Part shown: piece by piece, positions 13,999-59,045 of the stretch
How the letters are laid out: each line of letters opens with the position of its first letter
Position numbering within the stretch: position 1 is the first letter of the stretch
Source of the DNA: Lepidostoma basale
Taxonomy: Eukaryota; Arthropoda; Insecta; Trichoptera; Lepidostomatidae
DNA length: 64,000 bases
NCBI GenBank assembly: GCA_022606425.2
Contig: JAHDVF020000581.1
Span: 248,001 to 312,000 of the forward strand
Direction of reading: 5' to 3'
The notes under the pieces: model-generated
What the model was told of the DNA's origin: nothing
The model's input: the letters and a program-made list of their open reading frames with translations, nothing else
The model's database searches: none
Position numbers and translations under genes: made by a program

Positions 13999-14203
13999 TT
14001 AACTAAGGAAAGGAAGGCCACATTCACTATCATCCTGTGAGCCGTCGTAGCTCGATGGCGGAGTGTCCAGTGGTGGCAAACCAAGATCCAAGTATTCGTG
14101 GTTCGCTGTGATAGTCAGGATTCTGTCGAGATCCTGAACCAGCTCACTGAACGACGGCCTTTCCGAAGGTTGGAAGGACCAGCAGTCTCGCATGAGCATA
14201 TAT
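13999..14203 (-). CDS. FGFR: FGFR last coding exon: kinase C-lobe end and tail
   Basis: Starts phase 2 (one base, then TAT) after an AG at 14205-14204. Reads [20 protein letters not shown], then [11 protein letters not shown], the last kinase helices with the conserved RDCW and ERP. A short tail ([20 protein letters not shown], ending CGLPFLS) follows before TAA at 14001-13999. The EYLDL tyrosine is in the place of the tail tyrosine that recruits PLC-gamma in vertebrate FGFRs; that role is inferred. Confidence 0.93.
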
Positions 14204-17200
14204 CTGTAATAATAATAAAAAAAATTATAAGGTTAGTTTTTAGAGTAACATTTTATTGTCTGTTAAAAAAATTGTCCGTCTTTTGTCCGTAAATCAATTT
14301 AAGTACAATATTTACAAAACTCTAAACATCATTAGTATGAATAAAATCGCAAGATTAAAGTCTATGTAAAAATAATTCATTTTTAATAAAATACTGGAAA
14401 GTTGGTTTTTATAAAGTATAAACAAACAAGGATGTTTAAATATAAAAATTAATAAGGATTTGCTAAATATAAATCAACACATTCATATCAGTAGCCAATT
14501 AAGATGTCGATGTTGTTAATTGGAATTTTTTTTTCATAAGTTCACTGAAAATAATAAAAATATAAAAAATAAAAACCTATTCTTAATATAAGTTTGGTTT
14601 TATTCTACTTATTAATTTTATTAAATTTCTATTTGTCTGAAGCAAGTAATAAACAACTGAATTTAAAATAATTGAACAATATTGATTTAACTTTGTTACA
14701 CAACAGTTTATTTTAAATATACATAAAAGTAAAAATGAAAACAAATATGTTTCGGGACACAGAAACCCTTCATCGGTGTAGTTACATATGATATATAAAA
14801 AATAATAAGGAAGGTATCTGTGCCCGGAACATGTTTGTTTTAATTTGTAATTTAAATAAAGTGTTGTATTACAAATAAAATAAAAACATTGATCAATTAT
14901 GAATCTACAATGTATCTGTAAATGACCTTGAAAACTGTTTTTCCTTCATTATTATAATATTCTACAAGTCATTACAACTACAATAAATGTTTTAAAATTC
15001 GAATTTGAATGTTTTGAATATATCTTTTGCTTATATGTAAAATATATTTCTATAATTTACTTTCTAATAAAAAAAATATTTCAGATACGTAGACGAGTAA
15101 AAGTTAAAATAATCACGTGATTAACATCAACCAAGGAATCAATCACGAATAATAATGATTGTAATATCTCATCCGTAAAGCGAAAACAGAGATAAATTCC
15201 ATTTTCATCGTGTGATGAATACAAATCATTGTTTTGCAAGTCTAAAATAAATTTCAGTAAAAATCATGGTATGGCAGTGGTTGTCGGTCAATTGGTTTTT
15301 TATGCAATTATGCATTATGCTAGTATTTTTTTTATTGCTTATTAATGAATTATGTACGTATGCTAAAATGAAATATGTTTGAAATGCATTGGATGAGTGT
15401 AAATTTTATTCAAATAACTAATGTGTCAATAGGTTGCTAGGACATAAAGAATCGTGAATGAATTTTATATTCTTAAGAAGTCTAAAGAATTGTTTTGTTG
15501 TCTAAGCTTAAACGTGACATTTATAGTCCGGAGACACAATTACAAATGAGTAGATTTAAATGTGTATACATATTATATAACTAATAACTAACTAACTAAC
15601 TATAACGTCGTTTTGGGGTAGGCACATATGCAGAATGGGTCGGTCACACTGTTCTATCGATTTATTTAGAACACTATCATGATTATCTGTTGAAATTGAA
15701 GAATGTTATAACATAAGGTGTTGACGCTTTGTGGAAGATGTCCAGAGAAATTTCGTTTTGGACAAATTAAGTGTAAATTTATTTGATGCCATCCATATTT
15801 AGTGAAGTCGAGGTTGCTAAAAAAGGAGTTGCTTATCATCAAGCATAGCAAAGTGATTTTGGTTACTTCTTAAACATGATAAACGAAAATTGGTCCCGGT
15901 AAAGAGCCTTGTGGTATATCACATTAGAAATATCTTTTTAACCATTCGTCCTATATGTCCACACCAAATTAGTGACCCTTCATTAATTATATTTAGGATG
16001 CATTTAGCTACCTTACATTTTTTCTTACCTTTTTTTCGGTATTCTATCTTACATATTTTTTTTCCGCACATTCTTAGCGATCTCATTTCAACGGCATTCA
16101 TTATACTTTCAACCTTCTTCTCCCAACTCCAGTCAGATCTTCTATATATATTATGGTATATATTATATACTATTATGGTATACATTAATGTGTATAAAAA
16201 CTAACACATAACTAACATACCATCTCCCCGAAGGGGTAGGCAGAAAGAATGGATAGCCACACTGTTCTTTCTTAACATGCTTATTTTGCTTCATTATCAT
16301 TTCTCCGACTTCTCAGGTGGCAGACATTAAGAATATTTTATATATTTTATAAAAATATATAATAGTAATGATCATTAGCCTTTAACTATTTTCTTCTGAA
16401 CTTTACGCATACCTTTAAAAAATATTTTTCCACAACCTTTTTAATTTATTTATTGCTAATTTAATAAGTAGATGGTTTAATACCTTCCAACTGGTGTAAC
16501 CCGTTCTAGGGAATTTAAAGCACTCTTTATATTCGCAATAGAAAAATATGAAAATATATAACAAATAGGGAATAAAGTATATCTTAATTCGCATAGTATT
16601 ACTTTAAAATTAAATGTCTTCTATGATATATGATATTAACACAATTTTAATCAATCTTTACTTATTTATAAAAGGTCATTTACATAAAAGTTTTTCTATC
16701 TCCATATAATATTATCGTTTTAAAGAAATCATAGGAATAAGAGAAGGTAAATTCGGGGATACTAACACTTCTAAAGAGCAGCAGGGCGGTTTCTCCATCC
16801 TGTTTCCAGCGCTGAGGTGTTGGTACATGTACTGCCCTGGGACCGTGGGATATGGCGTCCCTCCTAGAGTCATAATCTCCCAAAGTAAAACACCAAACGA
16901 CCACCTGAAACAAACAGTAATACATGTTTTACAACTGAATTCCTTTGCTTATGTATATTTTTCTATGAAGTTGTAACATTTGTCTAATCCAGAATTTTTG
17001 ATATCGTTTGTTAATTGTTATAATTTTTAAATAACAGTATATCTTCGAATCTTCTCCGCTAGTTACAATCCAATGCATTGGTTTGAAGCAAAATGTAACA
17101 TTATTTAGTTGTTCTTGGGATGCCACTTGGGCCTTTAACGCGGTAGTTTCCTATCGCTTTCTACATATTTAATAATATTATATATTTTCTAGAAATATTA

Positions 17201-20200
17201 TGCTTATTTATAATTTCTTGAACATTGGTGTGAAACTCCATATTAAATAAATATAATACAAATAAAAACATCTGTTTTCTAGAAGTTTTAGTATTTTTTT
17301 ATGGGATTGACGTGTTTCATCTTGCTAAGGCATTATCAAATGTTCAAAAGTTAAAATTATCGAAAAACATTTGATTATTCCTTAGTAAGGTGAAACATAT
17401 CATTTCCATAAAATATAATAAAACTTCTAGAAAACAGACGTTTTCAATCGTATTAATTGCTAAATATTGTGATATTTGATGTGGAGATCATGGAAGGGAG
17501 ACCATGGGAGAGAAACCATGACTCATCACAACCATGGGACACCAAATACAACGGGCTGAGAATATAATCCTATTCAGGGGAAGAAGATGGATGAGAGTTG
17601 AGCAGGATAGAAGAAAATCTATACTATTTGAAGAGACCCATACCCAGCAGTGGAGACAACAAAAAACCTAGATGGCTAGGGATTAGAATGATATTTAAAA
17701 ATATTTCGCAAATGATATGATTCGATTTAAAAAAAAATTCAACTTTTCATTGGTTAAAAATGTTTGTTTAAATTAAGTATTTACAAAGCGCCTTTGAGGA
17801 GATTTACTAACGAAAACCACGCTATTAAAATTAGACTAATTATTATTTATTAATATATTACACGTCTGTTTGTGTTGTGAAAACTTTGTGGTACAAAGAT
17901 TCAGGCGCCATCCACCGGACTGGCAATCTGCCCTCAGTTTTCTTCCTGTAGTAGTCGTTGGACTGTACGTCCTTAGCGAGGCCGAAGTCAGCTATCTTCA
18001 GGATGTAACCGTCGGACACCAGCACGTTGCGAGCAGCCAAGTCTCGGTGAATACACTAAAATGATACAAAGAATGTTCCATTTATTATTCGGGGAGACGG
18101 CGTGATGGTTAGTTAGTTAGTCATAAAATAAGATAAAAAAATATCCTTAATAAAAAATTGATACCTATGAAAACGTCAGTTTTCTAGAAGTTTTATTATA
18201 ATTTATAAGAAAGACATGTTTCGTCTTCCTAAGGCATTGATAATGACTTAGAAAGGCGAAACAAATCATTGCCATAAATTCTAATAAAAGAGACTTTTTA
18301 ATTTGTATTAATACGAATGTTCCAAATACAGACATTATAATTTTGATATTATTTATTGTTTCTTGGACAATGAAAAACCCCTTTTTAGAACTTTTATTAT
18401 ACTATAAGGGAATGATTTATTTCGCCGTTCTAAAGCATTATCAAATTTGGAGCTATTGATTTATTATTGTATTTATAATGAGTATTCCTTAAGCATTATC
18501 AAATATCTAATTTATAAAATATTTAATAATACCTTAGAAAGGCGATGTCGTTACCATACAATATAAGAATACTTCTAGAAAACATACTTTTTCATTCGTA
18601 TTAATTGAGATATATTACAATATATTAAAACTATTTAGTTTAAACTAAAAAATTAAACGAATGTAACTAAATGAGCAAATTATTATTATTGTTATATTTA
18701 TAATAATTATAATTTGAAGTGTTTAAGAAATTTTAATTAATTATATAAATAAAACAACTTTGTATTTAACCACGGTAGGGTTATTATATTGATGCCAACT
18801 AGTTTCGCTTGGACCCAAGCTTCATCAGGGCAGTATAATAACTATGTTATTATACTGCCCTGATGAAGCTTGGGTCCAAGCAAAACTAGTTGGCATCAAT
18901 ATCCCTACCGTGGTTTAATACAAAGTTGTTTTATTTATATAATTATTTAAAATGTCTATCCACAAAGTGAGTGTTTTATATGAAGAATAAATTTTAATTA
19001 TTACTTAAACATTTTAATTGTACTTACTCTTCTGGAAGCCAAATATTCCATTCCTTTAGCGACTTGATAAGAAAATGAGACGAGATCTTTTTGCATCAGA
19101 GATTTGTTCTCTTTGTCGTCTGCTCCCATTGCTGGTTCATATCTAAAAATAATGTTTAATCCTTATATTTCCAAATATTTTCATACAAACACAAATTTCC
19201 AGAGAAGTGTTCAACAGTAAAATATTCTCGAGTCATATACCAAGTGGTAAAAAAATACTCATTAATCCAACTGGTACTTGAAGAAAATATCTAAAAACAA
19301 TATGAATTGGTAGTAGATGAATGCTATAATGCAACGTTCACATTTAGATTTTTAGATTTAAAACACGTCGTAATGCGTCCGTGAGGTGATTAAATCAGAA
19401 AAACGGCGCTTTAAAAGTTAGCATATTATTATTATTATTATTATTATAAACAACACAAGATGTTCTCCTTGAAAACTGCAAGCCTTTATGCACACCCAAA
19501 AAACATTTTTCAAATCAAGTAAATATCAATGATAATAATTAGATAAAACTGGGAAATGGTGTAGGGGACAGAACACTTGATTCTAGATCCAGATGACTTT
19601 GATTCAAGCCTGAACACAACCAGATTCTACTCACATTGTATTGTTGTATTATAGAGTGTATAATACAATTCTAAATCTTTTGATTTTAATCTTTGGTGTT
19701 AGCGTTTTTATTTAAAAATAATAATAATAATAAAACAATAACATACCCATTTCCGGTTCTGTGGTTTCTGAGGAACTCTCGAAGATTTCCGTGTGGCGCG
19801 TACTCTACAATGACATAGAGAGGCCCACCCTGCGTACAGCATCCCAGAAGATTGATGATGTTGATGTGCTTCCCTATCATCTTCATCATCTCCATTTCAG
19901 AAACCAGAGCCATCATTTCTGCGTCTGTGTGACCCTCTGAAACATTTAAAAAAAAAAAAATTATCTTATTTGAATTGACGCTGTTTTTGTATTCTATACT
20001 GCCTACAAATTACTATAAAACTTTTCACTTTTCACTAAAAAGGTAATTCACTATAAGTTCGTTTATTTTTTCTTGAATAACGATGTAAACATAAACACCA
20101 AAACATTTTCTAGTGTGACATTTTTCACTTTGTAAGAGTATCATCAAATGTTTGATAACTATCATACCAAAAGGAGCGAAACACCCCATTCTCATAAATT

Positions 20201-23200
20201 ATAATGAAACCTTCATTCAAATATTGTAATACAAGTCAGTGATATTAAAAAGAAAGTTTATTTTCCGAAAAAGGTATTAATTTTATGAAGATAATAAAAT
20301 CCCATTTTTATTAGATATACATACGCATCAAAAGTGCTGAATTGACCTTTAATAATAAGTTTTTTTTTTCAAATTCTGACAGTCGTATTCTTGTATGCAT
20401 GAAAATGCCATACACATTTTTATCTTTGACAAGTGCTTTCGCTCAACAAGTTATGATGCATTGTAAAAAATGTGTATCGATTGCTTTGTTGATAAATTTT
20501 AATGACAGTGATATAGAGAATGCAATAATTATGGAGTACAACATTTTTTAATGTCCAAAAACATAGCCAAAGTACACAGTTGTCAAATGGATTGAATGAA
20601 ATATTACCTTTGAGCATTTTAACTGCCACAACTGACTTGATTCCTTGTTTCAACACTCCAACGCCTTCAGCCATAACCACTTTTCCAAATTCACCTTCTC
20701 CAAGTATTTTTCCAAAGCCCAGTAATTCCCTTTGCTTCTCCCAGTCCAAGTCCACAGGGAGTTCGTATTCCGAGACAAGCATCGAGTCAGTGTTGGAACT
20801 AGGAACTTGTGACAGTTTTTGCTTCTCGATTTTTACAATTGGCATTAACTGGAAACAAATAACACATTTACATATGTAATATTAAAATTTTAATGCTTAT
20901 TCAATTAAAATATCATATCTAATGTAAAAAAATATGTCTTAGATTTTTTATCTGAGATGTAACATTGCACATTGTATAGTTGGTAAACATTTGTAATATC
21001 TTATATTGTTGAAATAAATATAGTCTTATATTAATATATTTTATATTATAATATCTAATTTCAATTCTAATGCAATTATAAATACAATTAATAACAGTAG
21101 TTTATCCCAATACGGTTTAAAAATGTGTCATTTTATGCGAGTAACTTACCAGTGGTTCTGTGACAGTTCCTGCAGATTGTCCATTCTCCAAATGCTGTTT
21201 CTCTACAGTCACCTTCTTGGTCCAGTGAGTAACTACAACTGCTCTGGCCGTTTCGATGGCCAAATGCTTCTTCATCTTTTCTCGCTTTAGCTTCTTGTAA
21301 ATGTAGATAACACATATCGTAGCAGCAATAAACAAAATACAAAGCACTCCAGATAAGACGTTGACCAGTGTGGAATGCTGTCTTACCGCCGCGATTGGCT
21401 CAGGATAAGCTAGAAAATAGAAAAAAATATGTTTAAAATTCGAATTCGATACAATATTGACCCTTTCAGTCTCGAATTGATTCTGATTGAACTTAATTTA
21501 TTAAGGTTTTTTAGGAAACAAGGAAAACTTGTATTTTTCGTAAGTTTGTTTTAATGAATAATTAAATAAAACGATGTTTTTTAACTACTTCAACTTTTGT
21601 CTTTATTTCGACAGCGACCGGTTTCGCCAGGCTCTCTGGCATCAACAGACTGGTCAGACCAGTCAGTTAGTCCGGATCGTCCATGTCAACATGTGCAACA
21701 TCGAAAAAAACATTATGTGTTATTACATTATGTGCTAAATTAAAAAAACGACGGATTCGTGGAACATAAATTAAATAGACAATATGTGCACCATCTAAAA
21801 AGAACATTTTGTGTTAAATTATTTTTATTTTGTAATTTTATTTAAATCATTGTATTTTATATTATTTATTTTGTGGGTGTTGCACGATCAAAGTGTGCGC
21901 GGGAGATGGCTATTGGTGGCGATGAGGTTCGCAACCCATCACACCGCGTCTCCTGCGGATCGAAAAGAGAAGGATGGAGTGCCGCATCAGTAAAAGTGTG
22001 ACAATCCATTCTTTCTGCCTACCCTTTCAGGGAGATGGCGTGATGGTTAGTTAGTTAGTTAGTTTTTAAAAAACATCATTTTATTTAATTATTATTTCAA
22101 ATCAACTTCCATTAGGGATTTCAGTAAAACCATTTGATTATCTTTGTATTGGATTTTGAGTCATAAAGAAAAAGTGAGATAAAGATGTTGAAATAATGCA
22201 ATTTCGCATGTACATTTTATCCTAAGATTTTACATAAAAAATCTGATATAATTAAAAATATCACCCGCTACTGAATTGCCAGTAAACGAACACGTAATCA
22301 CTTAATACACGCGTTTTAGTATTGATAACAGCTTGCAATTAAATTAATCTCATTCAATATAACAGTGTCTTAGCTTTGAGGATGAACCGCCACACTGTTA
22401 TATCTTTATATACCTCTCAAGCTTCATCTGTATTTAGTCAGGTTGACAGAATATATGAAACACTCTTCTGTTTCACGGCATTATATTCAAGTCTCCTTCA
22501 TATTCATGTACCGATTTTTAATAAATTATGAAGAAAAAAAATACACGATGTTTATATTTCAAAAAATTATCGCAGGTGTTATGTGGATTGCATATGTCCA
22601 GGAGATCATCAACGTTGTATTTGTATTATAATGAAATATATGTTGCAAATATTTTCTTGTGACAAAAATTGTTGATCCTCTAAGGAATTGAGTTAATGTG
22701 AGAAAAATATTTTTGGTACAGTTTAGTTATAAAATAAAAGAATCTACACTTTTATTCGGAAAATTTACAAAAATCATCCATAGATGGCATTAATATGTTA
22801 TTTTTATGAATACATTTAATAGAAGAAGATACTCTTTTTTTCGGATATATTATTCACGATGTTCTAATTCACGATAAGAAATAAATGTAAGGTGGATGAA
22901 TGCGTGATAAATAAAATAAAGAAATGGTCACTAAGATGGTTTGGACATATGAAACGAAGAATGGTTAAAAAGATATATACAAGTAGTATGAATGGAAAAA
23001 GAAGTCGAGGAAGGCCAAGGAAGACGTGGCACGACCAAATTAATTAATTACTGAAAGGCGGACATGTTCGAAGCAGGAACAATCGACGAGCGTGCATGTC
23101 ACGATGTGTGAATGTAGAAAAGGCGCGAGAGTTATGTGAGAATAGAACAATATGGCGATCCATCGTCTCAGCCTACTCCTCCGGGGAAACGGCGTGATGG

Positions 23201-26200
23201 TTAGTTAGCTAGTTAGTTATAATTGAAACTCTTGAAGAAATGAAATCTTAACCTCTCCAGTGGTATAACCGTACCGGTACGGTTGCACCTAGAAATAACT
23301 TATTACTCATTTTTTTCCAAATACCAAACGATACAGGCATCTGTGAACCATTTGTCACAAATGTTCCAAGTTTTGAGCAATGTAACTATAATACCGACGG
23401 ATTAAGTCACATTTTGAATATTCCGTGACATCATCACTTTAATTCGTATTGCCAACCTTTTAATGTCAGGATGCGATTTATATGCAATTTAATATAATAA
23501 TAAAAATTAAGTTTAATTATTTTAAGCGAAAAGAAAAAGAAGATTTTGTATGTATAATTTATCATGACATGATCCCGATTATGTTAAATAAATTAATGAT
23601 CTGTTGATGACTGATGGTTGACTATTTAAAAATAATCATTTTTCACACTAAATCGTTTTGTATTGTTTTTTTTTAGTAGATCCTAACTAAAAATGTATTG
23701 TACTTTCATATGATTTGGTATTTAATTATTTTATTTTGTTGTGTTCGAAAAAACTAACTACCTGACAGGTTAAAACATCATCATATATTGCATATATCAG
23801 ATCAGTTTTTACTTACATTCAAGAACAGTTAGATATGCCTTCGCGAATGTTTTTCCGAGACCATTTTCAGCAATGCACACGTACCAGCCTTCATCTTCCA
23901 TTGTTACATTAGTTATTTCCAGTACAGCGGGGTTGTCACTTGTACCACTCGTCTGTGAAAGGCAATTACAGCTATAGTATAAATTGCAATACTTATTTAT
24001 TTAATTCATGCAAGAACCTTATGCATACAATTATAAAATTGAGAAAAAACAAAAAAAAATCTACAATTTCATTTATATACTGTTAGGGCACTTAATTTTT
24101 AATTTAAATAATTTTCTGTTTAAATTATATTTTTGTTTATTATAAAAATACCATCATTTTCAATATTAAAAACAATAATAAGTTATAAATAATGTGGAAT
24201 TACATTTTTACGATTTTTTGTGGATAAAACCTTTTTTCTTTTCTTTTGAGTTTATTTTCTTGACTTATTTCAAATGTATTATACTAATGAATGAGGTATA
24301 AAACCTTAAAAATTTTCGATAAACATATTAATGGATTGTGTTTAGCTAAAAGTTAATAGTTCATTTTGATTTAATTTCATATAGGTAACATGTTTGTCAA
24401 TATGAATAATTACAAATTGTATCGAAACGCTGTTATTTTTATATATTCTTTTAAATTTCAACTAAATTTAAGATTGCTAATCATAAAATATTGTCGAAGA
24501 AACAATATCTAGTTTCATTTTTTGTTTACTTAAGGTAATTCCAAAAGGACGACGTTTGAATGAAATAAAATGTGAATTTTTATTATTATTTGTATTTAAA
24601 ATAAAATTAAACAAGACACTGCACTTTATTTTTCACCACAATGTGGTTATTTTAATTGCCGACTAGTTTCGCTTGTACCCAAACTTCTTCAGGGCCTCGT
24701 AATAAAATGTGTTACGTAAAACTGTTATTACGAATCCCTGAGGAAGTTTGGGTACAAGCGAAACTAGTCGGCAATTAAAATAACTGCATAGTGGTGAAAA
24801 ACAAAGTACAGTGTCTTATTTTAATTTATTTTAAATACAAATAATAATAAAAAATTAAAATATCTAACCACAAAGTGAATGCTTCATACAAAAATTTAAA
24901 TGAAACTAGATTTTTTTCCAATTTTGCATTTTTTTTACATATTTTGAAGGTTTCATACCTTCATCGGAAGAAAAGTGTTATAATTCATTTTTAAAATCGT
25001 AATTGTTAATTTTAAAGTTTTTAGTTACAAGATAGCTACTTATCGTGCATGAAGTTTTTGTTAGTCACTCAAGAACCCATAGCCAAATATATACCTTCAC
25101 CAGATTTAGTTTGGAGTCGAGGGAAGAGTTAAGGACCACAGAGCCCGGAGGAGTCCTCATCCACTGGATGTGGGGATGGAGATCGGAGAGGATCTCACAC
25201 GAGAAGGTGACATTCTCTCCCACGATCTTAGTTTGATTCAAGGGCGCCTGAGTCAGCACCGGTCTATGGTTTAATCTCTCTATAACATGATAAAGTCACA
25301 ATTCAAAAATTTGTCATAATTAATAAATGTGAGCAAAGCGTTATTACATTAATAACATAAACTTTTCATATTGTTTAGATTTAGTTTTATAAATCCCAAC
25401 ACCGTAACTGTTAAATACATTGAAATTCAGGCAGTATACATAATATCTAAGGTCAGTCGTGAAAACGAATGAAAACGTCTGTGTTTTAGTAGTTTTATTT
25501 TATTTTATTGGATTGACATATTTTTCATTGCAAATGACATTTGATAATGCCTTAGCAAGGTGAAATATGCCATTCCCATAAATTATAATATCATTTCTGG
25601 AAAAGAGACATTTGAATTCGTATTAATTATTCGAATTTTACATCATTGTCACCAAGAAACAACAAAAATAAATAAAGTCAGCCATGAAGTTGCTTATACT
25701 TCAAAAATTGAACTAAGCGAGTATAAAAATATTGTTTTTTTTATGCTTACAGCGTACATTTTTTGTGGCGTGATATTTTTTGTATGTCTTCTCCAACATA
25801 ATTTGTATTTGCATATAATAAAAATTCCACATATTAATTGGTGGGAAGGAGCTAAAGTAAGCCTTACTCTCAATTAAAATTATATTAAATGTTTCTAAAA
25901 ATATTGCAAAATATTGTGAAGTTCAATGCTTTTTATTAAGTTTTTAATATAAAAAAAAAAACAAAAAAAAAACAGGAAAGCGAACATTTTTGTAAATATT
26001 GCATATTATAAATACACCTACGCCCTAAATTTCACAATGCTCCTAAAAAAAGTAGCTACACTCTATAAACTTACACATTTTTATTATTCTAATATACTAC
26101 AGTGAAACTACAACAATATTCGTATACAGAGTTACTGTTTTCGGCATATAATAAATAAATAAATATAGGCTGTTCTTTCCTGACATACTTCTCTCGCTTC

Positions 26201-29200
26201 CTCAACATTAATACATCGCGTCATGCATGCATGTCGATTTCTCCGACTCCGTACACGGCCGACATTCAATATTTGATTTATTTGATCGTGTCACGTTTTC
26301 CTCGGTCTGATTTTTCTCTATTTCTAGTTCCGTTTAGAACGTTAACATATACTATTTTTTACCATTCTTTCTCCATTCATTCATTTCCTGTGTCCATATT
26401 AATGATCCTTTCATTATTTTGTTCATAACACCTTAATTCGCATTGCATTAATTTAAGTGGTATGTATATTTTCATTCGATACTCTCTATTATACACAAAA
26501 TTTTCCACACATTCGTCCAAGAAATCTAATTTCTACTGCATTTGTTTGACTTTCATCCTTTTTTGTTAGTTCCGTGCTTCACTTCCATCCATTAGAGTCG
26601 GTACACGAACACCTTTGTAACTAACTAACCAACTAACCATCACGCCGTCTCCCGAAGGGGTACGCAGAAATAATGAACTACCACACTTTTCTTTTCTGAC
26701 ATATTTCTCTCACTTCCTCAACATTCATACATCGTGTCATGCACGCGCGTCGATTTCTCTGGCTCCTTAAATGAACGAAATTCAAAATTTGATTTATTTG
26801 ATCGTGCCACGTTTTCCTCGGTCTTCCTCTATTTCTGGTTCCATTTACATCGTTAACCTATATTTTTTACCATTCTTTCTTCATTCATTCTCTCCATATG
26901 TTCAAACCATCTTAATGATCCTTTTACTATTTTGTTCATAACACCATCATTCGCACCGCATTCACTTCTTATATTTTCATTTGTCACTATCATACACAGA
27001 GTATCCGCACATTCGTCTAAGAGATCTCATTTCTACTGCATTTATTCTACTTTCATCCTTCTTTTGCCAGTTCCTTGCTTCACTTCCATGCATTTGGGTC
27101 GGTACAAGAACACCCTTTGCATATTGCCATAGCTTTTTTGGATAGGATGGAAAATATAGATTAAAGAAACAAGAAGAGAAAAGGGATAGGTCCTTAACCA
27201 ATCATTTTCCAACACCACCAGATGTCTGGTACCTGTAGGACTCTTCCTTTAGGGATATTAGTATCCTCCTCTTGGCTGTTTTCCTCTGTATAGGTTATGT
27301 TATCAACCCTCAGCCATTGGATGTAAGGTCCCAGATCAGAGGTCGGAGGACATTGGAGGATTGCGGTGGAATTTACAACTATTGTTTTGTTTCCAGGATA
27401 TCCTTCCTTGATGTATGGTTTCGAAGGGAATCGTTCTAAATATACGATAAACTTTTTGTAAAAAAAATCATACACACTTCTAATCGTTTAAAAAAGGTGT
27501 TTTTAAATGTAAATTTAAATTAAACTTAATTTTAAATCAAATTTAAAGATTAATGTAAATGAATTTAATACCATTATAACTGTTATTGTAACAGCCGATG
27601 ACGCCAACATCGGTTAGCGAATTAAAAGAAATTGTGAGATAATAACAGTGTTTTATATTTCAACAGAAATAATATTGAAGTATCATAGTGTTTCGGCCAA
27701 AACAATGGACTATTGAATTTAATACCGTTAAATGTATAAAATTCTATAATTTTTTTCTTATTACAAAAATCAATTATATATTTTCATAAGATAAAAAAAT
27801 TGTGTGCAGAGAAATGTATTATATTATAAATTGTAAAGATATAAATAATACTCGTACAATGAAAGTATATTATTAAGATTTTTATGAAAAACGGCAGTGT
27901 ATTTCGAATTTTTAATTTATAAGAGATGAAACTTGAGAGTGGAGAATACAGTTTTTAATTTTAAATAAAATATATTATAGATAAACCACAATCAAATGAT
28001 TTCTTGATGAGTGTTCATAAGTAATAATAAAATAAAACGATGGTTTTAAATAACTGCTAGCCTTTATTTTGACAGCGACCGGTTTCGCCACCTGCCTGGC
28101 ATTGACAGACCGATCGATTGCTAATGGTCCAGTCTGTCAATGCCAGCTAGTCTAGCGAAACCGATCGTTGTTAAAATAAAGTCAAAATTGGAAATAATTA
28201 TTGAAGTACATAGTTTTTTTATAATTATTATATACCACAATACCTATGTACGACCTCTGTGCATGATTACAAATGTTTTATGAAATATTTTGTGAATAAA
28301 TTTATTATTATATTTTAGATTATGTTTATATCTATATCATGATTGTAGAACAAAAAAAAAACAATAAATGGAACTGACCTATGACTTCAAGTTTCGATGT
28401 GAATTCTATGCAACCCATAACATTGCAGACTTTGCAGGTATAGTTGCCGTTATCCTGTGGGATGAGATCTTCCAGATTCAGGGCCCAGCGGGTCACCGTG
28501 ATCCTACCAAGGTATCGCTCAGGAGGAGTCTGCCCATTCTTGTACCATGTAATGTTTGGGAATGGGTTGCCTGCAATATCAATATAAACTATCAAAACTT
28601 GAAAATAATGGATTTGGAAACTTATATACTAAAAGTAGTGGAGAGGGGTTAAATTTTAACTAATTATGATTTTTGAGGGGGGAGGGAAGGATAGCGGGAA
28701 CATTTCGAACATGGGAATTAAAGTTAAATATAAATTTCTTCTATATTCGCCATAATTTGTGTTGTAATTGCTTTATTTCTATTTTTCTTTTTTATGCACA
28801 TTATTTATACAACAATACATAAAAAAAAAATTACATAGACATATTTCGGACAACCAGTCTTTCTTCAGTGATTTATAATATATAAAGATACATAAGAAAT
28901 TTAAAATATTATAAAATTGTTTATATGATCTGACAGATGTTACAAAGATTTCTAACATCTGTCAGATCATGTAAACAATTTTAAATATTTTAAATCTGTA
29001 TAATATGTATCACTGAAGAATGACTGGTTGTCCGAAACATTCTATGCAATTTTAATTTTTTAAATGTAAGTGTTGTGTAAACAAAGTGCATAAAAAAATA
29101 AAAAGAGAAATTAAATATAAGTGGTTGATAATATTTTCGTTTTCTCTAAAGGCTTTTTTTATTTCTTGAAAATAATAAAAAATCAAGTGAAATGGAACTA

Positions 29201-32200
29201 ATACCGTTTTTTTAATAATGTGCTGTTAAAATACACTTTGTATTTTAACAGCACTTTATTTATTTTTTTACAGACATATTTCGCCCAGGACCCACCCTTT
29301 TTCGATGTACAAATTAAAAAAAAAAAACTTCGAGAAAAGTTTGGTCACAACAGAAACGTGTCTGTAAAGTGTAAAAAAGTGTTGTAAAAATACAACGTGT
29401 ACTAATATTAAATTTATTTAAGCACTATTTTTATTGTTTTTATTTTATTTTCATTTTTAAATGGCAAAATATTTAAAGATTTTAACCTTCAGCTGGACAC
29501 TTGAACTTGATAGAACTACCCGCTGGTTTGGCCTCGATTTTGTGCATTTTGTCTGGACTCTTGAATCTCGGAGCTATCATGGAAGCAGTTGTGTCCACAG
29601 CTCCAGCCATTACTTTAGTCCCGTCTTGTTCTGTATCCCTAGAGTCCGTCTTGGGGTCTGCTGTGACCTCGTACTCCACATCTCTCGTCTCGTCAGACTC
29701 CTTGTCGCTGTCGTAGTGAGTCTTGGCGTTGGCATCGAGGGTTTGGTCGTCATTGTCGTAGTTGAAGCCTTCTTCGTCCTGAGAGCCGGTCAGGGCTGCG
29801 GTATCCGGGAGACCTCTCTGCGACAGTATTTCGAGACTCGGTTTTGGGATGTCAGTATCCGCTTGATATCCTAAAAACAGCACACTTAGTTAGAAGACCA
29901 AGTTAAAAGAACTTTATTATTTTTATATTTAAATATCAATGTTGTCTAATGAAACTCCTAAATTAATCAATTTATTAATTAATTTTTAATCATGAAGAAA
30001 AATAATAAGTAACATATATTTTTTATGAATTTTTAATTAAATCACTGTTATAGAATATCACAAATTGATTTTTTTTCTTTTAAAATTATCGCAATAGCTG
30101 TTTCGCTAACCAATGTTAGCATCGCCAGGTGTTACAATCAACATAAGTTGTAATAACACCTGTCGATGCTAACCTTGGTTTAGCGGTTGATTATAATACC
30201 TGATGATGCTAACATCGGTTAGTGAAACAGCTGTCGCGATAATTTTAAAAGAAATAAAATCAATTTGTGATATTCTAAAACAGTGTTGTAATTAAAAAGT
30301 TAATAATGTTAAAATATCAATGTGTTTCCGGTAAAACAATGGATTATTTAATATATTTTAATAATATTATAATAAGTTTTGGACTAGAAATAAGCAACAA
30401 ACTGCAAAACCAGTAGAATCTATCAAAGAAGGTAATTAATTATACTTAATATAATATTTTACATTACAATATATTTTACTGAACATAGAAAACCGACATT
30501 ATGTATTTTTTAATGAAAATGGCGCTTATGATTAACAAATTATCATTTAACTTAATGGAGTTTTTTTACATTCATTGTAGCGCTTACTTGGTCGTGTGAC
30601 ACTAAGTGATAACACTCAAAAATTTTGTTTTTACACTAATTTATTTGTTTCATAATAATGTGGTGTCAACAGAAACTTTTTTACTGTACACAGTTACAGT
30701 TACTGTTTAATTATAATTATACAATTAATCAAAAATAGTATGTAAAAAAGTACGTTTGACAGACTTACATAATATCCTTTTAAATAGCATGACCTGTTAA
30801 ACATTATAATTTAATAAGGATTAATTGTATCTCAATAGATACGAAGACGTAAATTGTTTTCTGGGAACAGAATGTGGTGGCCGAGGCGCTTACAGGACTT
30901 ATGACCTGTCATTGATTAGGTTGAGCGATCGCTTTATGTTTAACAACATTCCCCATTCCGCCTTTCTTATGACCACTACGTCTGACAATTTTTTAGAACT
31001 TGTATATATCGCACCGTGAGTGTAAAACCGAGATAACTGCAAATATAATTTTGGGAGATATGGGAGTTTAAAGACTTTTTATTGCTTGGAATTTTTTTAT
31101 TTTTTTAAATAAACCAATGATTTTCGGTTTATAGGTATATTACTATAAACCGAAAATCATTGGTTTATTTAAAAAAAAACAGTTTTTCCAAGCAATGTGA
31201 AGCCTTTAAACTCCCATATATCCAAAATGTATATTTGCACTTATCTCGGTTGCACTCATGGTGCGATATGCTAGAATCGCATGCTTATCTTTACATTTTT
31301 AAGTTCACTCTACACTAGCGTCATCTATTAGGATTGGGAAGCATTAAGCAGAAAAACTTTATTAATGCACTGTGAAAGTCTCTGCAAATCATACAGTACT
31401 AGATTACGCCTGGAGATGTCTCTCCAATGTTTATGCCTACTTGGACCAGTTATTTTATATAACATTTTGAATGTATACAATTTTTTGTAGACAAATACTG
31501 GATTTTACCCATTGTGGATAAATTCAATTAAATGTATCCGCAATGGGTAAAATCCAGTATTTGTCTACAAGAATTTGTATATATTCAAAATTATAATTTA
31601 AGTCAATTTGTTTGTTTTAACTAAAAAATAATAATGCTTACAGAAAACGGAAGCATTCGTTAATATTATATATCTAGTTTTAAATCATTGTTCAAGAATC
31701 AATAATACCTTCTAAAACATCCTGCAGATTCTCTTGATTAGAGTCAGCAATATTCCTCTTGCCTGGCAGGACCCTGATGGTAATGTTATAACTATCCGAC
31801 GTAGCCATTGTCTTCCCATCGCGTACCATGCAGGAGTATGCACCAGCATCAGCTGGCCTAACCGATTTGATTTTCAACCTGGAATTAATAAATAAACATT
31901 CTTTTTATAAACAAAATTCCTCTAGCGACATCGCCCAAAAGGTGGTTTGCTTTAATCAAAACAAACTTCATACGTACATGTATATCATAAAACAACTTAT
32001 ATGGAACAAACACAAACTGCAAATGCAAGCTTGCCAAAGATTAAACTTCAAAGTAATATGATGTTTTCTGTAACTTATTTGTCACGATAAGAGAGTAACA
32101 TCCTTGTCTTGGAATTATTATTTGATATTGCTCTAGCAAGGATGTATATTTAATATTTTATACTATATATAAGTAACAAAGTGAATGGTGGATTTAAAGT

Positions 32201-32982
32201 TGTCATCGCAAACAAAAACCTATCCAAAAAAGCTAAAATGGCAGTGCACTATGTTGTTCTTATACCGACCCTTATATATGGAAGCGAAGAATGGAACTGG
32301 CAAAAGAAGCATGAAAGTTGAATAATATTATGTGTATGATAGAGTGTCGAATGAAAATATAAGAAGTGAACGCGGCGGGAATGATGGTGTTATGAACAAA
32401 ATAATAAAAGGACCATTAAGGAGGTTTGGACACATGGAAAGAATTAATGTAGAAAGAATGGTAAAAAAAAATGTCTGTGAACTATGTAAATGGAAATAGA
32501 AATAGAGGAAAACCGAGGAAAACGTGGCACGATCAAATAAATTAATGTCGGCCACGTAAGGAGTCAGAGAAATCGACGCGCGTGCATGACACGATGTATG
32601 AATGTTGAGGAAGCGAAAGAAATATGCCAGGAAAGAAAATTGGCAGTCCATTCTTATTGCCTACTCGTCCGGGGTGACGGCTTGATGGTTAGTTAGTTAG
32701 TTATTTATTGGCCCAGCTTATAACTTATTTTGGATACACACCATTAAAAAACTTGAATAATCCTTCTTAAAAGTAAAACCATGTTTGGTTAATGTTTGTT
32801 TTATATATTTATACTTTAAAATTCTTACCACAATCTCTGCACCTTGATCCGATTATTTCCAGACGCTTTTAAGCTTTCGCCATTTTTGTACCATCTTATT
32901 GAAGACGTCTTCGCGAAAACAGCATTACATCTTAACTGAAGTCTTTCTCCCAAGAAGACCAGCCCAGTGGCGTTGTGTGCAT
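13999..32982 (-). CDS. FGFR: Fibroblast growth factor receptor (receptor tyrosine kinase), 5' partial, multi-exon
   Basis: Fourteen exons are visible, two of them alternatives, so one transcript joins 13 exons and about 854 codons. Order: Ig1 (32829-32982, 31709-31878), acidic box plus start of Ig2 (29487-29870), rest of Ig2 (28379-28570), first half of Ig3 (27233-27435 or 25095-25279), second half of Ig3 (23817-23952), membrane span (21150-21409), kinase (20608-20848, 19747-19936, 19028-19142, 17862-18055, 16767-16904) and tail (13999-14203). Every junction keeps frame and uses GT/AG. Kinase landmarks are LGEGEFGKV, the VAVK lysine, [11 protein letters not shown], a paired NDYYRKK activation-loop tyrosine motif and APE. 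FGFRs bind FGF with heparan sulphate at the cell surface and signal through Ras/MAPK; in insects they guide tracheal and mesodermal migration. Whether this is a breathless or heartless ortholog, or a single ancestral FGFR, cannot be told. The signal-peptide exon(s) should lie above 32982 and were not found. Confidence 0.95.
14204..15570. repeat. FGFR intron; contains a fold-back repeat at 14690-14875
   Basis: Mostly AT-rich. At 14690-14875 two inverted arms share CAAA.ATGTTTC and GGGACACAG..ACCCTTC. On the minus strand about 14749-14785 reads CCGATGA, one A, GGG-loop-CCC, GAAAC, then AT, a degenerate hammerhead-like core. Confidence 0.5.
15575..16345 (-). mobile_element. Nested LINE fragments in an FGFR intron
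   Basis: Three parts, all minus. 15575-15665 is an RTE-like 3' end with an AACTAACT tail. 15685-15925 is an internal piece of the CR1/L2-like LINE RT, matching 57610-57920 (block at 15714-15750; ACAGAGCCTTGTGG-like at 15902). 15926-16185 is RTE-like ORF ([26 protein letters not shown]). A separate RTE-like 3' end with tail lies at 16203-16345. The CR1-like piece probably inserted into the RTE-like copy. Confidence 0.65.
16346..16766. other. FGFR intron, AT-rich
   Basis: Nothing recognisable between the RTE-like fragment and the exon end at 16767. Confidence 0.3.
16767..16904 (-). CDS. FGFR: FGFR kinase exon ([11 protein letters not shown]-lobe)
   Basis: Enters in phase 2 (G then TGG) and reads [40 protein letters not shown], then CCSLEV split at GT. 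The donor is GTTAGT at 16766. I chose this donor over nearby GT dinucleotides because only it restores VYMLMRDCW with the next exon. WSFG and PYP are conserved in receptor tyrosine kinases. Confidence 0.93.
17213..17475. repeat. Fold-back repeat, TTGATAATGCC-type family
   Basis: Inverted arms share AAAACATCTGTTTTCTAGAA, ATGTTTCA-like and a CTTGCTAAGG..CCTTAGTAAGG core. It sits in the FGFR intron between 16905 and 17861. On the plus strand TTGATTATTCCTTAGTAAGG is followed by TGAAACATAT, a decayed form of the hammerhead-like order. Confidence 0.6.
17862..18055 (-). CDS. FGFR: FGFR kinase exon: catalytic and activation loops
   Basis: Begins in phase 0 at TGT after tttag and ends at GT in phase 2 (donor GTAATA). 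It encodes [40 protein letters not shown] and [20 protein letters not shown]. All catalytic residues are present: HRD Asp, Asn of AARN, DFG Asp and APE Glu. Tandem YY in the activation loop is characteristic of FGFRs. Confidence 0.96.
18150..18620. repeat. Two adjacent fold-back copies of the TTGATAATGCC-type family
   Basis: Copy one is 18150-18320 (GTTTTCTAGAAGTTTTATTA, CTAAGGCATTGATAATG, CTTAGAAAGGCGAAACAAAT). Copy two is 18342-18620, with a decayed centre. Both lie in the FGFR intron 18056-19027. Confidence 0.6.
18737..18946. repeat. Near-perfect palindrome with two hammerhead-like cores, in an FGFR intron
   Basis: Arms of about 100 bp in inverted orientation. The minus-strand core is intact: stem I TGCC 18832-18829 pairs with GGCA 18796-18793; CTGATGA 18828-18822; one A; stem II 18820-18807 (GCTTG/CAAGC); GAAAC 18806-18802; TA; GTT 18799-18797. 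The plus-strand core (18856-18895) has AAAAC in place of GAAAC. A 3' extension with CCACAAAGTGA at about 18960 recurs in the related copies at 24855 and 34515. Confidence 0.75.
19028..19142 (-). CDS. FGFR: FGFR kinase-insert exon
   Basis: Enters phase 2 (A then TAT) and leaves phase 0 at AGA AGA, donor GTAAGT. Encodes [20 protein letters not shown] then [18 protein letters not shown]. The first half is the kinase insert, which is acidic and variable. The second is the alpha-E helix leading to the catalytic loop. Confidence 0.94.
19330..19446 (+). mobile_element. CR1/L2-like LINE extreme 3' end, (ATT)n tail
   Basis: Contains AGATTTAAAACACGTCGTAA, GCGTCCGTGAGGTGATTA and AACGGCGCTTTAAAAGTTAG followed by (ATT)n, as at 12890-12980. 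It is only 3' UTR, inserted in an FGFR intron. Confidence 0.75.
19545..19740 (+). mobile_element. tRNA-derived SINE, family 2, ending beside an FGFR splice donor
   Basis: Shows GGTGTAGGGGACAGAACACT, CTAGATCCAGA, a B-box-like GATTCAAGCCTG, ACCAGATTCTACTCAC and the family's TTTTGATTTTAATCTTTGGT, then an AATA-rich tail. It matches 51846-52065. The tail stops only a few bases from the FGFR donor at 19746. Confidence 0.65.
19747..19936 (-). CDS. FGFR: FGFR kinase exon: alpha-C helix and hinge
   Basis: Enters phase 1 (AG then GGT) and leaves phase 2 (donor GTATGT). Encodes [40 protein letters not shown] and [20 protein letters not shown]. [20 protein letters not shown] is nearly invariant in FGFRs and includes the alpha-C glutamate. 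EYAPHGNL is the hinge with the FGFR-type molecular-brake region. Confidence 0.96.
20070..20245. repeat. Decayed fold-back repeat, in an FGFR intron
   Basis: AACGATGTAAACATAAACAC on one side and ATTCTCATAAATTATAATGA on the other match the TTGATAATGCC-type family. The core reads TTTGATAACTATC..GGAGCGAAACACC, partly scrambled. Confidence 0.45.
20608..20848 (-). CDS. FGFR: FGFR juxtamembrane and N-lobe exon
   Basis: Phase 0 in, phase 1 out (AAA G, donor GTAATA). Encodes [60 protein letters not shown] and [12 protein letters not shown]. The Gly-rich loop GEGEFG and the ATP-binding lysine in VAVK are intact. LPVDLDWE..R is the usual juxtamembrane entry to the FGFR kinase. Confidence 0.96.
20849..21149. 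other. FGFR intron, AT-rich
   Basis: No repeat or gene recognised. Confidence 0.3.
21150..21409 (-). CDS. FGFR: FGFR transmembrane exon
   Basis: Enters phase 1 (CT completing a Ser codon) and leaves phase 0 (donor GTAAGT). Encodes an extracellular stalk ([20 protein letters not shown]), the membrane span [16 protein letters not shown] and a basic stop-transfer [12 protein letters not shown] cytoplasmic stretch [15 protein letters not shown] and GTVTEPL then joins the kinase exon. Confidence 0.93.
21550..22140. repeat. ACCGGTTTCGCC fold-back repeat interrupted by element G
   Basis: The left arm (21550-21670: AATAAAACGATG, ACTTTTGTCTTTATTTCGAC, GACCGGTTTCGCCAGGC) and the end of the right arm (22063-22140: AAACATCATTTTATTTAATT plus the family's TTCCATTAGGGATTTCAG extension) flank a full copy of element G at 21672-22062. 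Compare the uninterrupted copy at 55508-55762. It lies in the FGFR intron 21410-23816. Confidence 0.65.
21672..22062 (+). mobile_element. Element G, longest copy
   Basis: Starts near GTCCGGATCGTCCATGTC and passes through GTGCACCATCTAAAAAG and the AT-rich GTATTTTATATTATTTATT. It then has the conserved block (CGCAACCCATCACACCGCGT, AGTGCCGCATC), the LINE-like CTTTCTGCCTACCC and GGCGTGATGG(TTAG)n. About 390 bp, non-coding. Confidence 0.65.
22141..22865. other. FGFR intron, no gene seen
   Basis: AT-rich. A small frame at 22443-22631 has no recognisable content. Confidence 0.3.
22870..23217 (+). mobile_element. RTE-like LINE 3' fragment, (GTTA)n tail
   Basis: Reads [54 protein letters not shown], then the standard ending GGCGTGATGGTTAGTTAG. 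One in-frame stop follows HDQIN. Confidence 0.75.
23218..23816. other. FGFR intron, no gene seen
   Basis: AT-rich unique-looking sequence. Confidence 0.3.
23817..23952 (-). CDS. FGFR: FGFR exon: second half of Ig3
   Basis: Phase 0 in (ACG AGT), phase 1 out (GAA T, donor GTAAGT). Encodes [40 protein letters not shown] and LTVLE, with the second Ig cysteine in YVCIAENG. There is a single version here, unlike vertebrates, where this half is the IIIb/IIIc alternative. If both upstream Ig3 exons are skipped, its frame becomes GAC GAG TGG TAC AAG TGA. Confidence 0.95.
23953..24580. other. FGFR intron, AT-rich
   Basis: Nothing recognised apart from a possible decayed arm (TTTGAGTTTATTTTCTTGAC, about 24245) of the repeat at 42893-43188. 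Confidence 0.3.
24582..24900. repeat. Fold-back repeat with two intact hammerhead-like cores, in an FGFR intron
   Basis: Minus core 24657-24695: CTGAAGA 24692-24686, one A, GTTTGGGTACAAGC, GAAAC 24670-24666, TA, GTC 24663-24661, with GCC before and GGC after able to pair. Plus core 24735-24772: CTGAGGA, A, the same stem II, GAAAC, TA, GTC 24767-24769. The arms continue for 60-70 bp, followed by the AACCACAAAGTGAATGCTTC extension. Confidence 0.75.
25095..25279 (-). CDS. FGFR: FGFR alternative exon A: first half of Ig3
   Basis: Phase 1 in (AG completing Glu), phase 0 out (AAG, donor GTATAT); 185 bp. Encodes [40 protein letters not shown], then [19 protein letters not shown] and LVK. It has the first Ig cysteine (FSCE), the core tryptophan (IQW), and N-glycosylation sequons NQT, NVT and NSS. 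The D2-D3 linker pattern ER..(H)RP is that of FGFR D3. It is homologous to exon B (27233-27435), sharing entry and exit phase, the ER start, C, SDL, P.IQW and R. Placed directly after exon B it would read AGA GAT TAA, a stop. Mutually exclusive use is inferred from phase. Confidence 0.92.
25450..25660. repeat. Fold-back repeat, TTGATAATGCC-type, in the intron between alternative exons and Ig2
   Basis: GAAAACGTCTGTGTTTTAGT on one side and TTCTGGAAAAGAGACATTTG on the other. The core TTTGATAATGCCTTAGCAAG is followed by GTGAAATATGCC. It lies between exons A and B. Confidence 0.55.
25661..26160. other. Intron between alternative Ig3 exons, no gene
   Basis: AT-rich. The frame at 25560-25877 has no domain content and overlaps a repeat. 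Confidence 0.3.
26165..26608 (-). mobile_element. RTE-like LINE fragment, 3' tail missing
   Basis: The reverse complement shows the family blocks (CGTGACACGATCAAATAAAT; GGATCATTAATATGGACACA), with decayed frames. Adjacent to a second copy in the same orientation. Confidence 0.65.
26619..27150 (-). mobile_element. RTE-like LINE 3' fragment with tail
   Basis: On the minus strand it contains [20 protein letters not shown] and [20 protein letters not shown], then the usual end with an AACTAACC-type tail at 26619-26640. It inserted between alternative exons A and B. Confidence 0.7.
27233..27435 (-). CDS. FGFR: FGFR alternative exon B: first half of Ig3
   Basis: Phase 1 in (AA completing Glu), phase 0 out (CTA CAG, donor GTACCA), the same as exon A; 203 bp. 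Encodes [60 protein letters not shown] and IPKGRVLQ. It has the first Ig cysteine (LQCP), the IQW tryptophan, and sequons NKT, NST and NIT. It differs from exon A in an acidic EENSQEED loop six codons longer overall. The frame stays open past the donor into the intron, but the donor is needed to keep frame with 23817-23952. No frameshift or stop suggests a dead copy. Confidence 0.9.
27590..27725 (+). repeat. Half copy of the GCTAAC-type hammerhead-like repeat
   Basis: CGATGACGCCAACATCGGTTAGCGAATT, then ATAACAGTGTTTTATATTTC and GAAGTATCATAGTGTTTCGG, as in the copies at 30052-30360 and 42510-42790 (first motif given as part blocks CGATGACGCCAAC and ATCGGTTAGCGAA). Confidence 0.5.
27726..28020. 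other. FGFR intron, AT-rich
   Basis: Nothing recognised. Confidence 0.25.
28022..28205. repeat. ACCGGTTTCGCC fold-back repeat, in an FGFR intron
   Basis: Inverted arms with AATAAAACGATG, GACAGCGACCGGTTTCGCC and CTGTCAATGCCAGCTAG-loop-CTAGCGAAACC. Less similar arms than the copy at 55508-55762. Confidence 0.65.
28379..28570 (-). CDS. FGFR: FGFR exon: second half of Ig2
   Basis: Phase 1 in and out (donor GTCAGT after GTC ATA G). Encodes [60 protein letters not shown] and LEVI, with the Ig2 tryptophan and second cysteine. The closing G joins AA of exon B or AG of exon A; both give Glu-Arg. Confidence 0.95.
28745..29110. repeat. Fold-back repeat with hammerhead-like core, in an FGFR intron
   Basis: Arms share GACTGGTTGTCCGAAA in opposite orientations (minus about 28840-28875, plus about 29010-29045). 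Each has CTGAAGA, one A, a hairpin around GAC..GTC, GAAAY; the minus copy is followed by AT and GTC. TCTAACATCTGTCAGATCAT repeats make the centre palindromic. Confidence 0.6.
29215..29425. repeat. Decayed fold-back repeat, in an FGFR intron
   Basis: TTTTTTACAGACATATTTCGCCC on one arm and GTGTCTGTAAAGTGTAAAAA on the other (parts quoted short), with AACAGCACTTT and AGTGTTGT ends. The core is poorly preserved. Confidence 0.5.
29487..29870 (-). CDS. FGFR: FGFR exon: acidic box and start of Ig2
   Basis: Phase 1 in and out (384 bp). Encodes a long linker rich in Asp/Glu ([15 protein letters not shown], then [20 protein letters not shown]), the equivalent of the FGFR acid box. It ends with [20 protein letters not shown] and SIKFKCPAE. 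The basic [11 protein letters not shown] stretch aligns with the heparin-binding start of Ig2 in vertebrate FGFRs, and FKCPAEG carries the first Ig2 cysteine. Confidence 0.95.
30052..30360. repeat. Fold-back repeat with hammerhead-like core, in an FGFR intron
   Basis: The plus core at 30200-30235 reads CTGATGA, one T, stem II GCTAAC..GTTAGT, GAAAC, AGCT, GTC. An inverted arm at 30085-30125 is similar. The outer part GTTAATAATGTTAAAATATC recurs at 13195 and 42725. Confidence 0.65.
30361..30819. other. FGFR intron, AT-rich
   Basis: No gene or repeat recognised. Confidence 0.3.
30820..31005 (+). repeat. Single arm of the 7296-7690 fold-back family
   Basis: GGATTAATTGTATCTCAATA, TTTTCTGGGAACAGAATGTG and GTGGCCGAGGCGCTTACAGG match 7308-7385 closely. 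No inverted partner. Confidence 0.65.
31006..31270. repeat. Fold-back repeat (ATATCGCACC ends)
   Basis: The left end TATATCGCACCGTGAGTG and right end CACTCATGGTGCGATATG are inverted, as are GAGATAACTGCAAATAT and the central ACCAATGATTTTCGGTTTAT. Arms about 125 bp. No hammerhead-like core seen. It sits in an FGFR intron beside the previous arm. Confidence 0.65.
31458..31605. repeat. Fold-back of the GGATTTTACCCATTG repeat head
   Basis: GTAGACAAATACTGGATTTT then CCCATTG at 31489-31515, and the inverse at 31540-31575. The same head occurs singly at 7225-7290. Confidence 0.6.
31709..31878 (-). CDS. FGFR: FGFR exon: second half of Ig1 and linker
   Basis: Phase 2 in (one G), phase 1 out (GAA G, donor GTATTA). 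Encodes [40 protein letters not shown] and [24 protein letters not shown] is the Ig F-strand motif with the second Ig1 cysteine. Confidence 0.92.
31879..32185. other. FGFR intron, AT-rich
   Basis: No gene seen. Confidence 0.25.
32190..32705 (+). mobile_element. RTE-like LINE 3' fragment, (GTTA)n tail
   Basis: Blocks from AAGTTGTCATCGCAAACAAA through TATATGGAAGCGAAGAATGG, AATCGACGCGCGTGCATGAC and GGCTTGATGGTTAGTTAG match the longer copy at 52213-53025. Frames are broken. Confidence 0.7.
32829..32982 (-). CDS. FGFR: FGFR most 5' exon visible: first half of Ig1
   Basis: Phase 1 in (AT completing a codon, acceptor ttcag), phase 2 out (TTG TG, donor GTAAGA). Encodes [40 protein letters not shown] and [11 protein letters not shown], with the Ig1 cysteine (LRCN) and tryptophan (IRWYKNG). 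The upstream exon with a signal peptide must end in phase 1; none was recognised. Confidence 0.9.
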
Positions 32983-58985: not shown

Positions 58986-59045
58986 TTCTAGAACATTATT
59001 TATTAAATACGGAGTGTTCCAGCTATGTCAAGAAACAATAAATAA

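What the first reader, a model, noticed from the sequence alone, without database searches (positions are those of the whole stretch)
25095..27435. Two homologous, frame-locked alternative exons for the first half of FGFR Ig3
Exons 27233-27435 (B, 203 bp) and 25095-25279 (A, 185 bp) both start in phase 1 with Glu-Arg, carry one Ig cysteine and an IQW tryptophan, and end in phase 0. Joined B to A, the frame reads AGA GAT TAA and stops at once. With both skipped, it reads GAC GAG TGG TAC AAG TGA. Only one at a time gives a receptor, so they look like mutually exclusive exons. In vertebrate FGFRs the alternative exons (IIIb/IIIc) encode the second half of Ig3 and switch FGF preference; here the first half, including the D2-D3 linker, would be switched. 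I do not know of this arrangement being described in insects. The two also differ in charge (an acidic loop in B) and in glycosylation sites.
Basis: partly seen in the sequence, partly recalled or inferred. Interest (0 to 1): 0.88.

Follow-up and report, generated by a model that had tools for sequence, protein, structure and literature searches.

The report
Swappable half-domain in insect FGF receptor
A caddisfly-like insect gene for an FGF growth-factor receptor carries two alternative versions of one exon that helps shape the ligand-binding part; this arrangement has already been reported in insects, and the sequences compared here suggest that it is old and might be related to the fruit fly's two separate receptors.

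Summary
The two exons are real. B (27435-27233) and A (25279-25095), minus strand, are the only two copies found in the window of the exon for the first half of FGFR Ig3 (vertebrate IIIa), in a receptor frame of 13 coding exons. Either alone gives an open receptor; canonical B+A, or neither, stops at once. The lock leaks: an AG two bases inside exon A makes B+A open, and 3 of 18 directly fused protein models in other insects look like that join.

Added here: A-type and B-type forms among 200 classed relatives, from damselflies to moths; seven same-species protein pairs that differ almost only across this exon; two sharpest A/B differences at FGFR1 positions 256 and 284 (284 recalled as an FGF contact). 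Fly Heartless looks A-type; Breathless is mixed, B-like at 284 and in overall score, A-like at 256 and 279. So one gene plausibly makes two receptors by exon choice; a Heartless/Breathless link is a hypothesis. Splicing and ligand preference were not measured.

The parts
32829..32982 (-). FGFR coding exon, Ig1 first part (first coding exon located; the start codon and signal peptide exon were not located)
   Evidence: open frame, ag/gt sites
31709..31878 (-). FGFR coding exon, Ig1 second part
29487..29870 (-). FGFR coding exon, acidic linker and start of Ig2
28379..28570 (-). exon upstream of the pair: rest of Ig2, donor at 28379 (phase 1)
   Evidence: 104.2 bits to the exon profile
27233..27435 (-). 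alternative exon B: Ig3 first half, B type
25095..25279 (-). alternative exon A: Ig3 first half, A type
25276..25279 (-). AGAG at the start of exon A: its first AG, used as a +2 acceptor, would put B+A in frame
23817..23952 (-). exon downstream of the pair: Ig3 second half (one copy found; equivalent of IIIb/IIIc)
21150..21409 (-). transmembrane and juxtamembrane exon
13999..20848 (-). kinase exons: 20848-20608, 19936-19747, 19142-19028, 18055-17862, 16904-16767, 14203-13999 (stop)
   Evidence: PF07714 324.4 bits on the joined protein

Best explanation
The window holds the FGF receptor gene of a caddisfly-like insect. Its IIIa exon exists in two ancient versions, B and A, and a mature mRNA normally takes one of them. 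The choice replaces the D2-D3 linker and the first half of Ig3, keeping shared residues (ER at the linker, Cys277, Trp289 in FGFR1 numbering) and changing others, among the sharpest those at positions 256 and 284. The choice would make one gene yield two receptors with different FGF preference. Wrong combinations (both exons by the canonical sites, or neither) hit a stop at once and should be lost. Shown: anatomy, frame, an A/B pair of types shared with many insects, near-identical protein pairs differing in this exon in other species. Inferred: splicing in this species, nonsense-mediated loss of wrong products, ligand preference, any regulator. The confidence given is for the exon-choice part; for a change of ligand preference about 0.6.
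For: Frame and splice sites. Two IIIa-type exons in the window and no third among the printed matches. Of 205 relatives were classed by profile score: 113 B only, 58 A only, 20 B then A, 9 other patterns. Of 11 candidate same-species A/B pairs, six are identical outside the exon, R. maidis has one further difference of 7 residues, Loxostege and Pararge models are identical next to the exon but differ elsewhere, and Dendroctonus and Choristoneura turned out to be different genes. Tree of 78 chosen IIIa segments: 35 B rows, window B, 5 fly Breathless rows and 2 unsure dipteran rows on one side, 87/93. Print: PMC5703972 section 12 and Fig. 7 legend.
Against: No RNA evidence for this species. B+A can be in frame through a +2 acceptor, and 3 of 18 directly fused models elsewhere (P0104, P0116, P0119) look like that join. 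The ligand-preference step rests on analogy and on a contact residue recalled from memory. The window's own B exon has Gly at position 284, where 123 of 125 other B segments have Glu.
Confidence: 0.85

Rival explanations
1. Both exons can be included together through the +2 acceptor of exon A, giving a third receptor form with two Ig3 first halves in a row.
For: B+A with the +2 AG is open to the stop; 3 of 18 directly fused models (P0104 damselfly, P0116 ant, P0119 wasp) join in frame with what looks like the loss of just the Glu.
Against: The acceptor would be GAG, a weak kind (recalled); the product would hold two Ig first halves with one second half. The other 15 fused models bridge with extra residues or are cut short, as expected of prediction artefacts.
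Confidence: 0.07
2. One of the two exons is a relic, no longer used in this species.
For: Window B lacks the near-invariant Glu at position 284; there is no RNA evidence.
Against: Both exons keep open frame, splice sites, Cys and Trp, and score high with their own type (88.9 and 93.4 bits); each falls with Trichoptera or Lepidoptera kin of its type.
Confidence: 0.05
3. The exon choice does not change ligand preference; it tunes stability, glycosylation, heparan sulfate or partner binding.
For: Sequons differ in position between A and B; Arg250, recalled as a general FGF contact, is kept in most of both types; the sharpest A/B position, 256, is not one I know as an FGF contact.
Against: The second sharpest difference sits at position 284, recalled as an FGF contact. 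Two fly receptors with different ligands (PMC3863949, passage) fall on the two sides of the A/B tree, though with modest support.
Confidence: 0.25

Closest known systems
Insect FGFR exon IIIa mutually exclusive event (Burguera 2017, PMC5703972; Sharma 2015 on Tribolium cited there)
   Same: Same gene, same exon (IIIa), two versions used one at a time.
   Different: Here in a caddisfly-like insect, without expression data. Only the legend of Fig. 7 was seen, not the figure; the legend lists bee, flour beetle and fruit fly as the insects drawn, with the fly genes intronless. Sharma 2015 is not held.
Vertebrate FGFR1-3 IIIb/IIIc
   Same: Duplicated exon of Ig3, one used at a time, tied to ligand preference (PMC5703972, passages).
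   Different: There the second half of Ig3 is switched; here the first half, and the second half is single. PMC5703972 holds the chordate duplication to be separate.
Drosophila and other higher-fly Heartless and Breathless
   Same: Heartless has A-type features in its Ig3 first half; Breathless has some B-type ones.
   Different: Two separate genes, reported intronless (PMC5703972, Fig. 7 legend, which prints 'heartless and branchless'), not one gene with a choice. Breathless is mixed: A-like at positions 256 and 279.
Tenebrionid FGFR models (P0001, P0002)
   Same: Both A-type and B-type IIIa present.
   Different: There the models repeat a longer D2-D3 block with one type in each copy.

Membership tests
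FGF receptor gene | three Ig domains, acidic box, transmembrane segment, tyrosine kinase | tested here: met
   Pfam Ig domains (3 stretches) and PF07714 at 324.4 bits; best PDB match is FGFR1, E 6.4e-47 for A and 1.8e-46 for B; acidic box and transmembrane segment read by eye in the translation
Insect IIIa alternative pair | two IIIa-type exons between the same flanking exons | tested here: met
Insect IIIa alternative pair | the two belong to the same A and B types as in other insects | tested here: met
   win_A with Arctopsyche and Lepidoptera A 100/99; win_B with Lepidoptera B 98/87 (53 columns)
Mutually exclusive exons | single inclusion keeps the frame, double inclusion or skipping breaks it | tested here: inconclusive
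   met for canonical sites; a +2 acceptor makes double inclusion open
Mutually exclusive exons | mRNAs of this species contain exactly one of the two | not testable with these tools
   no RNA-seq at hand
Ligand-switching FGFR isoforms (IIIb/IIIc-like in effect) | isoforms differ in FGF preference | not testable with these tools
   needs binding or genetic tests

The most novel reading that the evidence does not exclude
The pair is the ancestral insect form of the Heartless/Breathless split. Before winged insects diversified, one FGFR gene gained two IIIa exons, A and B, read out as two receptors; in the line to higher flies the gene duplicated and each copy kept one version, so splice isoforms became two genes. 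Mosquitoes, said in print to lack breathless, still have a B-like form of the exon.
Probability: 0.45. Interest if true: 0.65.

Novelty: new member of a known kind. Interest (0 to 1): 0.4.

Why it matters
It offers a testable case of one receptor gene serving two ligands by swapping part of its binding domain, in a different half of the domain from vertebrates. If the Heartless/Breathless link holds, the two best-studied insect FGF receptors are former splice forms, and the statement that mosquitoes lack btl (PMC3130749, passage) would need rewording.

Tried and rejected
A frame break at the last kinase junction was suspected and withdrawn: donor GAAGT|gttagt at 16767 restores it. A third IIIa-type exon in the window: none among the printed matches. 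Docking or selector pairing between the introns: duplex energies of the 15 flank pairs lay between -34 and -51 kcal/mol with no control run and no related DNA at hand, so this is untested rather than excluded. Steric exclusion by a short intron: unlikely, the B-A intron is 1953 nt; all three introns around the pair are GT-AG. The IIIa tree as proof of Htl=A and Btl=B: not claimed. With ten rows left out (nine of the eleven flagged as long, and Melanaphis B, identical to a flagged row; the flagged Tribolium madens A and Rhopalosiphum A were kept), B+BTL holds with 84/84; holding HTL+BTL together is not rejected (p-AU 0.363), nor is B+HTL (p-AU 0.19). A second FGFR in this genome: the D2-D3 search found, outside this gene, nothing above 36% identity among 20 matches; the four kinase loci fetched are 35-39% identical to this kinase; a genome-wide FGFR-kinase search did not complete, so a second gene is not excluded.

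Papers. PMC5703972: search listing, passages, section 12 whole. Passages only: PMC6469426, PMC8224027, PMC4244043, PMC3863949, PMC3130749, PMC3320908. Not held, so not seen: Sharma 2015, Katsuma 2006, Mistry 2003. I recall the Sharma abstract as reporting exon-specific RNAi with separate tissue roles; that is memory, not a result. A link of Heartless/Breathless to the exon pair was looked for with the ten paper searches and not seen in the listings or the passages opened; Sharma 2015 may contain it.

Full report
WHAT WAS CHECKED. The minus strand at 29.0-23.4 kb was read directly. Exon B (27435-27233) and exon A (25279-25095) have AG/GT borders, enter in phase 1 and leave in phase 0. Translating the joins: upstream-B-downstream and upstream-A-downstream are open; B+A reads VLQRD*; neither reads VIDEWYK*. 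Extending to the whole gene gave 13 coding exons per isoform, from 32982 to the stop at 13999, 853 residues with A and 859 with B. The start codon was not located. Pfam finds three Ig stretches and a tyrosine kinase. The best solved-structure match for the Ig2-Ig3 part is human FGFR1 for both isoforms.

MORE THAN CHANCE. Profiles made from relatives found with A and with B were run over the six-frame stop-to-stop ORFs of at least 20 residues in the window. Exon A scores 88.9 (A profile) and 48.8 (B profile); exon B 93.4 (B profile) and 50.9 (A profile); the next ORF printed reaches 9.8 (eight rows printed per profile). So two IIIa-type exons were found and no third.

FRAME LOCK IS LEAKY. Exon A begins AGAG. 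If its first AG serves as acceptor, the exon loses two bases and B+A becomes open to the normal stop, while A alone by that acceptor stops early. A scan of GT around the B end and AG around the A start, 60 bases either way, found 7 donor-acceptor combinations that make B+A open; one of them keeps the canonical B donor with an acceptor within 5 bases of the canonical A start. In relatives, 18 models place B directly before A (20 'BA' rows less P0001 and P0002, where the blocks lie far apart). In three (P0104, P0116, P0119) the join is in frame and looks like loss of just the Glu, as the +2 acceptor would give. These are database models; whether RNA supports them was not seen.

WHOSE GENE. The kinase part is 89% identical to that of the caddisfly Arctopsyche grandis; the other 39 rows printed are below 85%. 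In a tree of 51 kinases (50 proteins chosen by me and the window) it joins Arctopsyche with 99/89 and then Lepidoptera with 100/100. A caddisfly is the likely source; one caddisfly protein was in the set. The genome is 769 Mb in 1572 contigs, and an Ig2-Ig3 search found no other locus above 36% identity.

RELATIVES. Three protein searches gave 205 proteins (one search listed 120 of 244). Of 205, 200 could be classed by A and B profile scores: 113 B, 58 A, 20 B-then-A, 6 unsure, and one each of ABA, AB and unsure-A (the A and B totals include fly Heartless- and Breathless-like rows). Both types were seen in damselflies, termites, bugs, beetles, Hymenoptera, Lepidoptera and mosquitoes; in mayflies, thrips and locust-type Orthoptera only B was among the rows used in the tree, and in lice only A. 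Of 11 candidate same-species pairs, six are identical outside the exon, R. maidis has one further 7-residue difference, Loxostege and Pararge models are identical beside the exon but differ elsewhere, and two (Dendroctonus, Choristoneura) proved to be different genes. Among 14 records on contigs of 3-7 kb each carries one type; four are fly Htl- or Btl-like and may be intronless, leaving ten that probably are transcripts.

WHAT DIFFERS. In 77 A and 125 B segments, Htl and Btl held apart, the most type-specific positions in FGFR1 numbering are 256 (Val 42 and Ile 32 in A against Tyr 119 in B), 284 (His 64 of 77 against Glu 123 of 125), 252 (Pro 123 in B) and 258. The classes were made with A and B profiles, so such differences are partly built in. 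The numbering was set by me from Cys277 and Pro252, which are recalled, as is the role of Gln284 and Arg250 as FGF contacts. The spacing from Pro255 to Asn264 is 8 in 73 of 73 measurable A segments (4 unmatched) and 9 in 117 of 121 measurable B segments (4 unmatched); the two vertebrate rows have 9. The window's A has 8 and its B has 9.

LINK TO FLY RECEPTORS. In the IIIa tree five higher-fly rows taken as Breathless (one so named by its source, the other four joined to it 97/92 in the kinase tree) fall with B, and three rows taken as Heartless (short, one D2-D3 unit found) fall with mosquito A, 94/90. At 284, 11 of 11 Btl-like rows have Glu and 0 of 5 Htl-like; the spacing is 9 in 11 of 11 and 8 in 5 of 5. 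Limits: six of the 11 Btl-like rows were assigned by me from length, layout or score and were not in the trees; a spacing of 9 is shared with vertebrates, so it is no sign of kinship with B, while 8 in Heartless is shared with A and with a few odd B rows only. Against the link: at 256, the sharpest position, Btl-like rows have Ile in 11 of 11, as many A do; at 279 they have Val in 10 of 11, as many A do; at 251 Leu in 11 of 11, the commonest A residue; at 252, 258 and 278 they match neither type's usual residue well. Heartless-like rows have Asn at 270 in 3 of 5, the B residue. The profile scores of the 11 Btl-like rows lean to B by 6-14 bits. Kinases of Htl and Btl form one side of a branch at 95/88 in a tree without outgroup, so the gene split looks younger than the exon pair. 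The IIIa alignment has 53 columns; with ten rows left out B+Btl falls to 84/84, and a tree with Htl and Btl IIIa together is not rejected (p-AU 0.363).

PRINT. PMC5703972 (Burguera and others 2017), section 12 and Fig. [quoted passage not shown] PMC3130749 (passage) states that mosquitoes lack btl and that Aedes and Culex have two htl genes. Here An. funestus has two protein forms identical outside the exon, one A (P0203) and one scoring 68 B to 61 A, unsure by my cut-off (P0183); how many genes mosquitoes have was not tested. [quoted passage not shown]

VERDICT.

Noticed in passing
window 121-3222 (-): An open LINE-type frame of 1033 residues (endonuclease PF14529 and reverse transcriptase PF00078); the first 4 kb have 55% GC against 28-39% in the other 4-kb steps.
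   Followed up: partly
window 57010-58995 (-): A second reverse transcriptase stretch (PF00078 for 57013-58191); the ORF just upstream in the same frame was not searched.
   Followed up: no
window 27200-26180 (-), also about 52677-52227, 47368-46785, 35468-35142: Similar stretches of what looks like one LINE tail (RRMCG...[15 protein letters not shown]); two copies lie in the intron between exons B and A (read by eye).
   Followed up: no
window 27329-27331 (-), in exon B: Gly (GGA) at the FGFR1 position 284, where 123 of 125 other B segments have Glu.
   Followed up: no
P0001 Zophobas, P0002 Tribolium madens, P0071 Asbolus: FGFR models of these beetles contain repeated D2-D3 blocks with A-type or B-type IIIa.
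   Followed up: no
P0061/P0077 Choristoneura, P0054/P0089 Dendroctonus: Signs of a second, divergent FGFR gene in some species: the A and B records differ along the kinase too.
   Followed up: no
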